Below are positions 8,040 to 24,333 of a DNA stretch of 64,000 nucleotides, piece after piece. The position numbers were made by a program, and so were the translations under genes. Location: positions 4,402,001 to 4,466,000 of the forward strand of contig NZ_BNEM01000002.1 in NCBI RefSeq assembly GCF_018327705.1, in the 5' to 3' direction. Position 1 is the stretch's first letter. Every line of letters starts with the position of its first letter. The DNA comes from Catellatospora sp. TT07R-123. GTDB taxonomy: Bacteria; Actinomycetota; Actinomycetes; Mycobacteriales; Micromonosporaceae. The notes under the pieces are model-generated. The model saw only the letters and a list, made by a program, of their open reading frames with translations. It was not told the origin of the DNA and ran no database searches.

Positions 8040-9284
8040 CTATACCAGTTCGATCCGGCCCACGTCGCCGTGGATGCGCAGCTCTACTCCCGTAGACAGG
8101 GACTCGAAACGGCGCAGGAGGTCTGCCGCCGCCGCGCCGCGGGCTCGTACCGGCAGACCGCGGGTCGCGGGATCCGCATCCGTCCGGAGCCGGAAGGGCA
8201 CGAGTTCGATGCTGCGCACGCGACCGGCCGCCAGGTCGACCTGAGCGCTGATGCCCTCCCAGAACATAGGGTCTCCGGAGAAGTCCAGACCCCGTTCGGC
8301 GATCTGGCTGTCGGTGGCGGTGACCGGCAGCCGCGCCTCCCGCCGGGCATCGTCGGGTAAGGCGGACACGGCGTGGTACTGGAAGATGAAGTTGCCGAGG
8401 CTGTAGAAGATCGGCGCTCCCCGGTAGAACTCCATACCGCGTACGACATGGGGTCCGTGTCCGAACACGATGCGTGCGCCTGCGTCGACCAGCAGGCGGC
8501 TCGTCTCGACGAAGAAGTCGGCCGGATCGCAGCTGCGCGGCCCTGACTCGTGGCTGTGCAGGCTGACGATCACATCTCCGTGTTCGGCTGCGGCGGCAAC
8601 CGCCCCGGTCAGCATACCGATGTCCTCGGCGTCGATCAGACTGTCCGGGTCGGGACCGCTGCCGACGGTGACGAGCAGGTTCTCGGAGAGCCGGATCCGC
8701 TGTGCCTCCGCCGGGATCTCGGTGTCGTACATCAGGCTCGCCGCGATCCGAGCACCGGCGAAGATCTGCGGCTCGAGGGTGCGGCGGCGGACGAACCGCA
8801 GCGGAGCGACCCCGGGCCGACCGGGGATCGGACCTCGGGTCCTGGTGGCCGCGAACCCGAAGGGAAGCGTGCTGCACGCGCTGATCAGGCTGACCGAGCC
8901 CGCCCCGCAAGTCGCCATAGCCGGTGCGAATGCCTGCTCGTAGGTGAGCCCGACACCGGCCGAGGCTATGCCGACCGCCTCCAGCGAGGCGGTCGTGGTC
9001 AGCATTCCCGGGACGCCGTAGTCCAGAGCATGGTTGTTGGCCCTGGCCACCATGTCGAAACCGACTGCTTTGAGGTCTGCCGCCGCAGCGGTCGGGCAGC
9101 GTAGGTACATCCCGCCCTTGGCCGCGCCGGCGGGCATCCCGTAGTCGTGGAACAGCGTCTCCAGATTGCAGACGGTCACGTCGCCGGTGCCGATGTTCAG
9201 TTCCTCGGCCGCGAGATCACCCGCAGCCACCGCGTCGGCGAGGCCCGACGTCAACAGGGCATCACCGAACAGCGTGATCCTCAC
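8040..9284 (-). CDS. CapA-family (PGA_cap) metallophosphatase-like protein
   Basis: A 414-residue protein of the CapA/PgsA family, which shares the calcineurin-like metallophosphatase fold and is known from poly-gamma-glutamate capsule systems. Visible landmarks are ITLFGDALL at the N-terminus, [39 protein letters not shown] and [11 protein letters not shown]; these carry the family's metal-ligand Asp, Asn and His residues. GTG at 9284 follows AAGGGAG with 8-nt spacing; an upstream in-frame start at 9341 would add an arginine-rich extension without a ribosome site. No signal peptide or membrane anchor is seen, unlike capsule CapA. It is 70 bp downstream of the MFS gene in the RiPP operon. A role acting on the peptide or its acidic leader is possible but unproven. 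Confidence 0.85.
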
Positions 9285-9354
9285 CGGAACGACTCCCTTC
9301 TGCTCGGTCTGGCGTTCATCCCGATCCGGGCCTCGACGCACAGGCCCGGACCGG

Positions 9355-21736: not shown

Positions 21737-21759
21737 CCCAACCACGAAGGAGTTCACTG

Positions 21760-24333
21760 ATGGCTCTTGTGCGTAACCTCTCCCATGTCGAGGCGATCGA
21801 CCGAGCCCGCCTGATCACCGTGGCGGCCTACGACATCACGGTCGACCTCACCGATGGTCGCGGCGCACCCGCCGACGACACCTTCCGCACGATCACGGAG
21901 GTGGCCTTCACCTGCACCGAACCTGGCGCGGAGACGTTCGCCCAGGTGGCGGCGCGTGCTGTGCGCGCGGCTTCGCTGAACGGCCGTTCCCTGGACCTCT
22001 CCGGCTGGTCTGCGGACAAGGGACTGGCACTGTCGGATCTCGCGGCGGTGAACACGCTGATCGTCGACGCCGACTACGAGTTCTCCAGCACCGGCCAGGG
22101 ACTGCACCGGCTGGTCGACCCGGTCGACGCCGAGGTCTACCTGTACAGCCAGTTTCAGGCCCAGGACGCCCAACGGGTGTACGCGTGCTTCGACCAGCCC
22201 GACCTCAAAGCCGTGTTCACCTGGCACGTGACGGCTCCCGCCCACTGGAGGGTGGTCTCCAACGCGGTCGTCGAGCGTGTCGAACGCGACCAGACCGCCC
22301 AGGTGGTGCACTTCGCCGAGTCGGTGCGGATGAGCACATACATCACCGCCCTATGCGCCGGACCCTTCTACGAGGTGCGCGAGATGCACGACGGCATCGA
22401 CCTGGGCCTGCTCGCCCGTAGAAGTATGGGGCAGTACCTGGAGCCGGACGACCTCTTCGCCACCACCAGACAGGGCTTCGACTTCTACCACGCCCAGTTC
22501 GGCGTGCGTTATCCGCTGCCGAAGTACGACCAGTTGTTCCTGCCGGAGTTCAACAAGGGCGCGATGGAGAACTTCGGCTGCGTGGTCAACGCCGAGCAGA
22601 CGTTCATCTTCCGCTCGCCCGTGACCGACTTCGAGTACGAGCAGCGCGCCAACACCCTGCTGCACGAGATGGCGCACATGTGGTTCGGCAACCTCGTCAC
22701 CATGCGCTGGTGGGACGACCTGTGGCTCAGCGAGTCGTTCGCCGAGTGGGCCTCGCACTGGTGCAACACCGAGGCGACCCGCTTCACCGACGCCTGGACC
22801 ACGTTCCTGTCCCTGCACAAGAGCTGGGCCTACCGCCAGGACCAGCTCTCCACCACCCATCCCGTATACAGTCGGATGGATGACGTGGCAGCGGTAGAGG
22901 TCAATTTCGACGGCATCACCTACGCCAAGGGCGCCAGCGTCCTCAAGCAGATCGTGGCGTACGTGGGCATCGACCCATTCGTGGCGGCACTGCGGCAGTA
23001 CTTCGCCAAGCACGCCTGGGGCAATACGACGCTGAGTGACCTGTTGACCGAACTCGCCCAGACCTCGGGCCGGGACGTCACGCCGTTCGCTGCGCAGTGG
23101 CTGACGACAGCGCAGGTCAACACCCTGCACCCCGAAATCGAATCGGATGCGGGCGCCTACCGCCGGGTGGCGATCCGGCAGACCGCACCGATGGACCACC
23201 CGACGCTGCGCCGTCACCGCATCGGAGTCGGGCTCTACGACCTCGTCGGTGCCGAACTGGTACGCCGTCAGATCGTCCACGTCGACATCGACGGTCCGGT
23301 CACCGAATTGCCCGAGCTGATCGGCTTGCGCACCGCGGACGTGCTGCTACTCAACGACGACGACCACTCATACGCCAAGATCAGGCTCGACTCCCGGTCG
23401 CTGGCGACCGTGGTGGACCACATCGCCGGCTTCGGCTCCTCCCTGGCCCGCGGGTTGTGCTGGGCCGCCGCCTGGGACATGGTGCGCGACGGCGAGATGG
23501 CCAGCCGAGACTATCTGGCGCTGGTCGCGTCCGGGCTGCCGCAGGAGACCGACATCAACCTGATCACCGCCACGCTGATGCAGGCACGGACCGCGATCGG
23601 GCAGTATGCCGACCCCGAGTGGCATGCGCCGGGCTGGGAACTGCTCGCCACCGTCTCCAGAACGGCCATGCTGGAGGCGGCCCCGGCAAGCGGCTTCCAA
23701 CTGGCCTGGGCACGCAGTTTCGCCTTCGCCGCCCGCGGCGAGCAGGACCTCGCCGTTCTGAAAGGCTGGCTCACCGGATCCGGCGTCCCGACCGGACTCA
23801 CCGTCGCCGGCGACCTCCGCTGGCACATCATCCAGATGCTGGCCGCGGCCGGGCGGGTCGGCGCCGCCGAGGTGGCGGCTGAGCACGCGGCAGACCATAC
23901 GGCCACGGGCGACCGTCAGGCGGAACTCGCCCTGGCGATGCTGCCCGACGGCGCTGCGAAGGCAGCTGTGTGGGAGGCGCTCACGGCATCGCAGCAGCCG
24001 CCAAACTGGAAGGCCCGGGCGATGCTGATCGGCTTCCAGCACCCGTCGCAGCGGGAGCTGCTGGCTCCGTATACGAAGAGGTACTTCGACGTGGCGGCGC
24101 GGATCTGGGCTGAGCGCGACAGCGAGTCGGCGCAGGAGTTCATGACCTTCGCCTACCCGCGATTCGACATCAGCGAAGAGGCGATCGCCTACGCCGAGAG
24201 GTGGCTCGCGCGTGACGGGCACCCGGCTCCGTTGCGCAGGCTGGTCATCGAGGGCAAGGACGCCGTCGCCCGCGCGCTGGCCTGCCGCCTGCGGGACACC
24301 GCGGCACGGCAGGTGGCGGTGGCGGGTAGCTGA
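21760..24333 (+). CDS. M1-family aminopeptidase (PepN-like)
   Basis: An 857-residue M1 aminopeptidase, close to the usual actinobacterial PepN length. The substrate-anchoring motif is KGAMENFG. The zinc site is His302-Glu303-Met-Ala-His306 with the third ligand Glu in LSESFAEW, 18 residues on. The C-terminal ERAP1-like helical domain is complete. ATG at 21760 follows AAGGAG. No signal peptide, so it is cytosolic. It is the last gene of the rightward operon, 23 bp after the methyltransferase. In this setting it probably trims leader remnants from the N-terminus after an endoproteolytic cut by the M16 or S8 enzymes. Confidence 0.94.
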   Translation: MALVRNLSHVEAIDRARLITVAAYDITVDLTDGRGAPADDTFRTITEVAFTCTEPGAETFAQVAARAVRAASLNGRSLDLSGWSADKGLALSDLAAVNTLIVDADYEFSSTGQGLHRLVDPVDAEVYLYSQFQAQDAQRVYACFDQPDLKAVFTWHVTAPAHWRVVSNAVVERVERDQTAQVVHFAESVRMSTYITALCAGPFYEVREMHDGIDLGLLARRSMGQYLEPDDLFATTRQGFDFYHAQFGVRYPLPKYDQLFLPEFNKGAMENFGCVVNAEQTFIFRSPVTDFEYEQRANTLLHEMAHMWFGNLVTMRWWDDLWLSESFAEWASHWCNTEATRFTDAWTTFLSLHKSWAYRQDQLSTTHPVYSRMDDVAAVEVNFDGITYAKGASVLKQIVAYVGIDPFVAALRQYFAKHAWGNTTLSDLLTELAQTSGRDVTPFAAQWLTTAQVNTLHPEIESDAGAYRRVAIRQTAPMDHPTLRRHRIGVGLYDLVGAELVRRQIVHVDIDGPVTELPELIGLRTADVLLLNDDDHSYAKIRLDSRSLATVVDHIAGFGSSLARGLCWAAAWDMVRDGEMASRDYLALVASGLPQETDINLITATLMQARTAIGQYADPEWHAPGWELLATVSRTAMLEAAPASGFQLAWARSFAFAARGEQDLAVLKGWLTGSGVPTGLTVAGDLRWHIIQMLAAAGRVGAAEVAAEHAADHTATGDRQAELALAMLPDGAAKAAVWEALTASQQPPNWKARAMLIGFQHPSQRELLAPYTKRYFDVAARIWAERDSESAQEFMTFAYPRFDISEEAIAYAERWLARDGHPAPLRRLVIEGKDAVARALACRLRDTAARQVAVAGS

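What the first reader, a model, noticed from the sequence alone, without database searches (positions are those of the whole stretch)
8040..24333. RiPP locus pairing YcaO and radical SAM chemistry on a peptide ending in three cysteines
Seen: a 41-aa acidic precursor ending NFNVACCC; a YcaO enzyme with a PWPQPFP tail; ThiF-like and clamp-like partners; a radical SAM/SPASM enzyme; a methyltransferase; an MFS exporter; a CapA-like protein; M16, S8 and M1 peptidases, on two divergent arms. Known: the proline-rich tail marks azoline-forming YcaO enzymes, and SPASM enzymes crosslink or epimerise peptides. Inference: the product carries up to three consecutive C-terminal thiazol(in)es plus a radical-SAM change. 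I know of no described family with a bare Cys-Cys-Cys end handled by both enzyme types and this set of accessory proteins.
Basis: partly seen in the sequence, partly recalled or inferred. Interest (0 to 1): 0.92.

Follow-up and report, generated by a model that had tools for sequence, protein, structure and literature searches.

The report
Peptide cluster pairing two cysteine chemistries
An actinobacterium carries a gene cluster that looks built to make a tiny peptide ending in three cysteines, on which two different enzyme types (a radical enzyme that probably ties a cysteine to an asparagine, and a ring-forming YcaO enzyme) seem to act side by side, a pairing that also shows up in a few other bacterial genomes.

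Summary
A 41-aa ORF ending NFNVACCC heads an operon (M16 pair, helical protein, radical SAM/SPASM, MFS, MslH-like CapA protein) opposite a second arm (S8, GAF, SagD-type YcaO, ThiF-like, unknown, methyltransferase, extra PepN). Homologous peptides with an EGH leader and N-x-x-C end lie in the rSAM loci of Phytohabitans suffuscus (NVGCCG, with YcaO) and Streptomyces hoynatensis (NFGC, no YcaO in the 21-kb locus). Small ORFs upstream of rSAM relatives, chosen without regard to the motif, have Asn three residues before the first Cys in 26 of 31 distinct Cys-bearing tails. The rSAM enzyme therefore most likely makes an Asn-Cys thioether, as streptococcal NxxcB does, using Cys39; that leaves Cys40 and Cys41, not three cysteines, for YcaO. 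No dehydrogenase was recognised, so thiazolines are likelier than thiazoles. The CapA protein keeps MslH's catalytic residues and may epimerise the C-terminus. A YcaO gene sits with such an rSAM also in Phytohabitans, Nonomuraea, Sphaerisporangium and Nitrobacter. YcaO plus rSAM on one peptide is itself proven elsewhere (carnazolamide, with an rSAM epimerase). No product is shown here.

The parts
15973..16098 (-). Precursor peptide, 41 aa, leader with DLEGH, C-terminus N36-V-A-C39-C40-C41
14612..15937 (-). M16 peptidase, catalytic subunit (HLFEH present); coding start probably near 15889
13261..14625 (-). M16 partner without HxxEH (probably the inactive half of a pair)
12169..13257 (-). All-helical protein of unknown role; homologues in the rSAM loci of S. 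hoynatensis and Actinorhabdospora filicis
10742..12169 (-). Radical SAM/SPASM enzyme (CNMGCSYC; further cysteines 359-448), inferred N-x-x-C thioether synthase
9355..10671 (-). MFS exporter
8040..9341 (-). CapA-fold protein related to the lasso peptide C-terminal epimerase MslH, with its metal and catalytic residues conserved
4741..7943 (-). Cyclase/AAA regulator in two overlapping frames (4741-6981, 6846-7943); similar regulators of about 1030 aa lie in four relatives' loci
3927..4538 (-). LuxR-type response regulator, homologues in three rSAM relatives' loci
16299..17138 (+). S8 protease, QhpE-like (catalytic DSG, GHGT, GNSFA motifs)
17135..17776 (+). Stand-alone GAF protein; in relatives S8 and GAF occur together (11 of 11 loci at the thresholds used)
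17773..19065 (+). SagD-type YcaO, ends NPWPQPFP
19029..19628 (+). ThiF-like / leader-binding partner of YcaO
19621..20919 (+). Unknown protein in the position where related YcaO operons have a SagB dehydrogenase
20963..21736 (+). Class I SAM methyltransferase
21760..24333 (+). Extra copy of aminopeptidase N (M1)
24388..26226 (-). S9 peptidase, possible cluster member

Best explanation
A RiPP cluster that puts two sulfur chemistries on neighbouring cysteines of one short core. Shown by sequence: the precursor, its conserved EGH leader and N-x-x-C end, the tight gene order, and the enzyme families. Inferred: the SPASM rSAM joins the sulfur of Cys39 to Asn36 (by analogy with NxxcB, at C-beta), making a four-residue ring. 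The YcaO with its ThiF-like partner turns Cys40 and/or Cys41 into thiazolines. The MslH-like protein epimerises the C-terminal residue through its carboxylate. The S8 protease and the M16 pair cut the leader, and the extra PepN trims the remaining residues. The methyltransferase caps one site (unknown which), and the MFS protein exports the product. Likelihoods: both enzymes act on this peptide 0.8; Asn-Cys thioether 0.6 (C-beta specifically about 0.5); thiazoline at Cys40/41 0.55; C-terminal epimerisation 0.35.
For: Gene order and spacing. Precursor conservation: among 6589 short ORFs in 54 loci (four of them duplicates) the window peptide finds only the precursor of Phytohabitans (listed twice, E 0.0041) and that of S. 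hoynatensis (E 0.011); the next hit is E 5.4. In 50 distinct rSAM loci, a short ORF with N..C in its last 12 residues ends within 450 bp upstream in 31, against 20 of 1678 background windows. With the ORF chosen by codon usage plus start-codon and ribosome-site bonuses, without looking at the motif, Asn stands at -3 of the first Cys in 26 of 31 distinct Cys-bearing 14-residue tails (Asp 2, Lys 1, no residue at -3 in 2), and at no other offset more than 5 times; after merging similar tails 21 of 25 have Asn. NxxcB makes a C-beta thioether Asn20-Cys23 (PMC8326336 and PMC13361665, passages). The window YcaO is above the SagD cutoff. In Phytohabitans the tail is NVGC-CG with a YcaO; in S. hoynatensis it is NFGC with nothing after it and no YcaO in the 21-kb locus. 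YcaO also lies in one same-strand gene run with an N-x-x-C precursor and the rSAM in Nonomuraea and a Sphaerisporangium MAG, and directly after the rSAM gene in Nitrobacter vulgaris, whose precursor has NTGC and NSGC. All eight MslH metal/catalytic residues align.
Against: No product or enzyme activity is shown. The peptide is rare: besides this genome it was found only in Phytohabitans among 151 relatives (four further matches are weak, E 0.007 to 0.09, in frames over 350 aa), and in none of the other 396 order genomes with the earlier two-row model. The 24 further matches in the phylum sample are weak (E 0.004 to 0.096), 23 of them in frames over 200 aa. Streptomyces sp. ODS25 has NNICC with no YcaO in its 21-kb locus, so a second Cys does not require YcaO. 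The Sphaerisporangium precursor has no Cys beyond its N-x-x-C, so its YcaO would have to use Thr or another peptide. The YcaOs of Phytohabitans (86 bits) and Nitrobacter (196 bits) are under the SagD cutoff of 219. Streptococcus relatives of the rSAM showed no N-x-x-C ORF upstream, so homology to NxxcB itself is not shown. MslH similarity is far below the equivalog cutoff (153.7 against 700), and CapA proteins in general may keep these residues (not tested). Many of the counted tails come from related genomes.
Confidence: 0.6

Rival explanations
1. One reading: YcaO converts all three cysteines to consecutive thiazoles and the rSAM enzyme makes some other change, such as epimerisation or a carbon-carbon link.
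For: Three adjacent Cys next to a SagD-type YcaO. An rSAM epimerase acts after azole formation in carnazolamide (PMC10676384, passages). The site of the rSAM product here is not shown.
Against: The N-x-x-C motif is the shared feature of this rSAM family's substrates and is kept in S. hoynatensis, whose locus has no YcaO, so Cys39 belongs to the rSAM. No dehydrogenase was recognised for thiazoles.
Confidence: 0.12
2. The rSAM enzyme makes an alpha-thioether (sactipeptide type) or other crosslink at N-x-x-C rather than a beta-thioether; the rest as in the best explanation.
For: rSAM enzymes of RiPP pathways make alpha, beta and gamma thioethers (PMC8326336 passages); sequence cannot tell them apart.
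Against: NxxcB, the N-x-x-C enzyme described in the passages read, makes the beta-thioether.
Confidence: 0.2
3. Two products: rSAM, S8 and GAF work on the 41-aa peptide and the YcaO arm serves another, unrecognised precursor.
For: In the one L026-type Micromonosporaceae locus that I extended, the neighbouring YcaO belongs to a separate thiopeptide-like cluster with its own Cys/Ser-rich precursors. A precursor without a CC end would not have been seen by my window count.
Against: In the window no other short ORF ends in CC, the YcaO gene overlaps GAF, which overlaps S8, and S8-GAF travels with the rSAM in 11 of 50 loci.
Confidence: 0.12
4. The extra PepN is not a leader trimmer but a product-resistant copy, the product being an inhibitor of zinc aminopeptidases.
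For: The genome has three PepN genes; five of six same-genus relatives have two and one has one. The copy at G000:C1:3255767 is 62% identical to the cluster copy, as are the relatives' best copies (61-63%), so it is probably their counterpart (inferred, not compared directly). A cluster-borne duplicate of a housekeeping gene can mark the target (recalled).
Against: M1 proteases are known leader trimmers in lanthipeptides (PMC10885120 passages), and other peptidase genes lie around it.
Confidence: 0.1

Closest known systems
NxxcA/NxxcB (streptococcal ranthipeptide; Caruso et al. 2019, seen only as cited in two reviews)
   Same: rSAM enzyme with SPASM domain and a precursor with N-x-x-C (Asn20, Cys23)
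   Different: No YcaO is mentioned in the passages read; direct homology of the rSAM enzymes not shown here
Carnazolamide / dehydrazoles (PMC10676384, passages)
   Same: YcaO, rSAM enzyme, methyltransferase and S8 peptidase act on one peptide
   Different: rSAM is a PoyD-like epimerase acting on Pro; eight azoles with a dehydrogenase; dehydratase present; long nitrile-hydratase-like leader; no N-x-x-C crosslink reported in the passages read
[quoted passage not shown]
   Same: YcaO above the SagD cutoff with a proline-rich end, ThiF-like partner gene overlapping it
   Different: No SagB dehydrogenase recognised; the C-terminus has only three Cys, one in an rSAM motif
QhpC/QhpD/QhpE (quinohemoprotein amine dehydrogenase maturation; recalled)
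   Same: rSAM thioether enzyme with a dedicated S8 protease; the window S8 scores 99.8 bits with QhpE (cutoff 165)
   Different: Substrate there is an enzyme subunit (recalled); below the QhpE cutoff
MslH, lasso peptide C-terminal Trp epimerase
   Same: CapA-fold protein in a RiPP cluster; Asp11, Glu44, Asn87, His88, Asp91, His259, His261, His295 all conserved
   Different: C-terminal residue here is Cys; no lasso genes noticed; 153.7 bits against a cutoff of 700
TfuA-YcaO clusters with SPASM 'ranthipeptide' rSAM (PMC8120280, passages)
   Same: YcaO and SPASM rSAM genes in one predicted RiPP cluster
   Different: Thioamide-type YcaO with TfuA; no TfuA hit among the proteins scanned here
Paenithopeptin PttP1/PttP2
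   Same: Paired M16 proteases for leader removal (PMC10885120 passages)
   Different: Class III lanthipeptide

Membership tests
Azoline-forming (SagD-type) YcaO | Score above TIGR03604 cutoff | tested here: met
   224.2 bits, cutoff 219.25
Azoline-forming (SagD-type) YcaO | Proline-rich C-terminus | tested here: met
   ...NPWPQPFP
Linear azol(in)e-containing peptide | ThiF/E1-like leader-binding partner | tested here: inconclusive
   TIGR03882 32.0 bits, cutoff 36.9; clusters by sequence with seven ThiF-like partners of other YcaOs
Linear azol(in)e-containing peptide | FMN dehydrogenase (needed for azoles only) | tested here: not met
   No nitroreductase hit among the cluster proteins scanned; degenerate SagB idea scored no better than shuffles
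Linear azol(in)e-containing peptide | Azol(in)e in the product | not testable with these tools
   needs mass spectrometry
N-x-x-C ranthipeptide | SPASM radical SAM enzyme (CxxxCxxC and auxiliary cysteines) | tested here: met
   C127, C131, C134; C359, C378, C424, C427, C433, C437, C448
N-x-x-C ranthipeptide | N-x-x-C in the precursor, conserved across the enzyme family | tested here: met
   26 of 31 tails, 21 of 25 after merging similar tails; window N36-V-A-C39
N-x-x-C ranthipeptide | Homology to NxxcB | tested here: inconclusive
   NxxcB itself was not compared; two Streptococcus relatives at 29% had no N-x-x-C ORF upstream
N-x-x-C ranthipeptide | Non-alpha thioether | not testable with these tools
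   needs NMR
TIGR04463 rSAM_vs_C_rich (equivalog) | Score above cutoff | tested here: not met
   202.3 bits, cutoff 525; it is the best-scoring model
MslH epimerase | Metal and catalytic residues | tested here: met
MslH epimerase | Equivalog score | tested here: not met
   153.7 bits, cutoff 700
MslH epimerase | Epimerises the C-terminal residue | not testable with these tools
   needs an enzyme assay
Thioamide RiPP (YcaO-TfuA) | TfuA partner | tested here: not met
   No TfuA hit among the cluster proteins scanned

The most novel reading that the evidence does not exclude
A RiPP class in which an N-x-x-C radical thioether synthase and an azoline-forming YcaO work on adjacent cysteines of one core, giving an Asn-Cys ring followed directly by thiazoline(s) and, in this member, an MslH-type epimerised C-terminus. 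Scattered members of the two-enzyme pairing exist in Actinobacteria and an alphaproteobacterium.
Probability: 0.45. Interest if true: 0.76.

Novelty: new variant of a known kind. Interest (0 to 1): 0.6.

Why it matters
It names one exact peptide on which two separately studied sulfur chemistries should meet, with a small core that can be tested by mass alone (loss of 38.04 Da predicted for one thioether and two thiazolines, 54.03 Da for three thiazolines). It also gives a simple rule, N-x-x-C, that assigns likely substrates to a broad rSAM family with examples in actinobacteria, Bacteroidota, cyanobacteria and proteobacteria, and suggests that MslH-type epimerases may serve RiPPs other than lasso peptides.

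Tried and rejected
Clamp-like or degenerate SagB dehydrogenase for 19621-20919: AlphaFold model without alignment useless (mean pLDDT 36.6); profile comparisons with SagB sequences gave nothing, and its score against the SagB N-terminal profile (0.8 bits) was below those of several unrelated window proteins and of shuffled copies. Rejected as unproven.

YcaO in the six Micromonosporaceae loci of L026 type (L023, L026, L027, L028, L030, L032) first looked like strong recurrence of the pairing. Extending one of them (G086) showed a thiopeptide-like cluster with its own Cys/Ser-rich precursors, so none of the six is counted; the other five were judged by shared gene order only. L068 and L080 have weak YcaO hits far away (81 and 75 bits) and are not counted; nor is L124 (YcaO about 9 kb away).

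Precursor models over order and phylum samples found no convincing further members. The class sample with the rSAM at E 1e-105 found only the window genome, but only four candidates per genome were scored in that call.

The helical protein 12169-13257: model of moderate confidence (mean pLDDT 58.2), all helical; not searched further.

Literature: in the listings I saw no paper on an azoline-type YcaO with an N-x-x-C enzyme; some returned no papers at all. Seven papers were opened, all for passages only, except that part 1 of section 7 of PMC10406935 was read; the other listed papers were not opened. Only open-licence PMC is held.

Rows dropped: four duplicate loci before counts on 50 loci; the L020 S8 hit (48 bits, no GAF beside it) was left out when the S8 profile was built. 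In one search, 42 of 50 loci had GC of at least 0.62, 41 gave an ORF, and 10 of 41 tails without Cys were left out; the picks at L060 and L021 were wrong ORFs (their precursors lie elsewhere in the cluster). One search used my retyped list of 31, in which L095 has no Cys in its last 14 residues and the L060 pick is absent; of 25 merged representatives 21 have Asn, 2 Asp, L083 no residue at -3, L095 no Cys.
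Full report
What is there. The 41-aa ORF 15973-16098(-) starts with GTG behind GGGAG and reads MSDKNTTKPEIEADETDLEGHSIEVEEGDADAANFNVACCC. Of 401 short ORFs (25-120 aa) in the window it alone ends in CC. It heads a tight minus-strand gene run: M16 with HLFEH, M16 without it, a helical protein, radical SAM/SPASM, MFS, CapA-like (gaps from -14 to 83 bp). 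The plus-strand arm is S8, GAF, YcaO, ThiF-like, unknown, methyltransferase, PepN (gaps from -37 to 43 bp). The own genome has one copy of the peptide.

Where it lives. The genome is 9.17 Mb in two contigs.

Conservation of the peptide. The Phytohabitans rSAM locus (L021, L062) has a 59-aa peptide ending IHVNVGCCG, and the Streptomyces hoynatensis locus (L060) a 48-aa peptide ending LDVNFGC. Both share the EGH leader motif and N-x-[AG]-C. Searching the window peptide against 6589 short ORFs in 54 loci (four of them duplicates) found only these two precursors, the Phytohabitans one twice (E 0.0041 and 0.011; next 5.4). The peptide is rare: beyond the window genome, Phytohabitans alone gave a clear match in 151 relatives, none in the other 396 order genomes, and only weak matches in the phylum sample (24, E 0.004 to 0.096).

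The rSAM family and its rule. I studied 16 loci from the first search and the 38 closest of the 80; 50 distinct loci remain after removing four duplicates. In 31 of 50 a short ORF with N..C in its last 12 residues ends within 450 bp upstream, against 20 of 1678 background windows. To avoid choosing by the motif, I took the best-coding short ORF upstream (codon usage plus start-codon and ribosome-site bonuses) in 41 high-GC loci. Thirty-one distinct 14-residue tails contain Cys; at position -3 of the first Cys there is Asn in 26, Asp in 2, Lys in 1 (Nonomuraea, whose second Cys has Asn at -3) and no residue in 2; no other offset has more than 5 Asn. After merging tails at least 60% alike, 21 of 25 have Asn and 2 Asp. 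Examples: NFGC, NVGC, NAGC, NTVC, NSLC, NGVC. Bacteroidota, cyanobacterial and proteobacterial loci show the motif too, often twice or more; these were not tested against background by coding score. The streptococcal enzyme NxxcB joins Cys23 to Asn20 at C-beta (PMC8326336 and PMC13361665, passages only). By this rule Cys39 pairs with Asn36 in the window.

What is left for YcaO. The YcaO is SagD-type by score and tail. Cys40 and Cys41 follow the rSAM motif directly. In Phytohabitans one Cys follows and a YcaO is present; in S. hoynatensis none follows and the 21-kb locus has no YcaO. Against a strict rule, Streptomyces sp. ODS25 has NNICC without YcaO in its 21-kb locus, and the Sphaerisporangium precursor has no spare Cys. 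No dehydrogenase was recognised in the window cluster, so thiazolines are expected. The 19621-20919 protein stays unexplained.

Does the pairing recur? Of the 50 loci, 11 hold a YcaO match above 70 bits. Six are of the type that neighbours a separate thiopeptide-like cluster (for one, for the order of the rest) and two are weak or distant. Three are in the same cluster: Phytohabitans, Nonomuraea sediminis and a Sphaerisporangium MAG, the last two in one long same-strand run precursor-rSAM-flavoprotein-MFS-regulator-S8-GAF-ATP-grasp-YcaO-ThiF-SagB (the S8 of the MAG is seen). Outside the 50, Nitrobacter vulgaris has precursor (NTGC, NSGC), rSAM and a ThiF-YcaO fusion in a row. SagD scores are 291 bits in Nonomuraea, 196 in Nitrobacter and 86 in Phytohabitans against a cutoff of 219; the Sphaerisporangium YcaO was not scanned. 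S8 and GAF occur together in 11 of 50 loci and never singly at the thresholds used; a weak S8 hit in L020 has no GAF.

The accessory genes. The CapA-like protein aligns with MslH over most of its length (E 2.1e-37). Asp11, Glu44, Asn87, His88, Asp91, His259, His261 and His295 of MslH, named in the paper (part 1 of section 7 read), are all conserved. It scores 153.7 bits with the MslH model, cutoff 700, and no CapA match was found in the other 50 loci. The M16 pair recurs in one of them, Phytohabitans. PepN in the cluster is a third copy: five of six same-genus relatives have two copies and one has one. M1, M16, S8 and S9 proteases all serve leader removal in other RiPPs (PMC10885120, passages). 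CapA, PepN, methyltransferase and the 19621-20919 protein had no homologue above the thresholds used in the 50 loci (single-sequence profiles).

Known or new. Each part is of a known kind. YcaO with an rSAM enzyme on one peptide is proven in carnazolamide, where the rSAM is an epimerase and an S8 peptidase and a methyltransferase also take part (PMC10676384, passages); bottromycin and thiopeptides also combine them (recalled), and TfuA-YcaO with SPASM rSAM has been listed from genomes (PMC8120280, passages). I saw no paper on an azoline-type YcaO with an N-x-x-C enzyme on one peptide in the listings (open-licence PMC only; most listed papers not opened). I file it as a new variant of a known kind. 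Shown: anatomy, conservation, motif. Inferred: every chemical step.

Noticed in passing
window 4741-7943 (-): The cyclase/AAA regulator reads as two ORFs overlapping by 136 bp, while four relatives' loci have one frame of about 1027-1043 aa.
   Followed up: no
L163:2909-4432 (about 1.6-3.1 kb left of the window start): Tyrosine integrase (PF00589) with a small protein beside it; the region may be an integrated element.
   Followed up: no
L060:15531-15725 and L060:12774-15534: In S. hoynatensis a second peptide with DVEGHS leader ending LEGGGVVW lies beside two short rSAM-like proteins and a haem-oxygenase-like protein.
   Followed up: no
L072:9766-21359: The Nonomuraea run adds a flavoprotein (PF02441) next to a precursor with C-terminal Cys, which could mean oxidative decarboxylation of the last Cys, and a leader-like 60-aa protein ending DVQGQELKVL.
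   Followed up: partly
   Followed up: partly
L021:4598-6498 and 8773-10413: In Phytohabitans the B12-rSAM gene reads in two overlapping frames and the rSAM/SPASM gene changes frame near its end.
   Followed up: no
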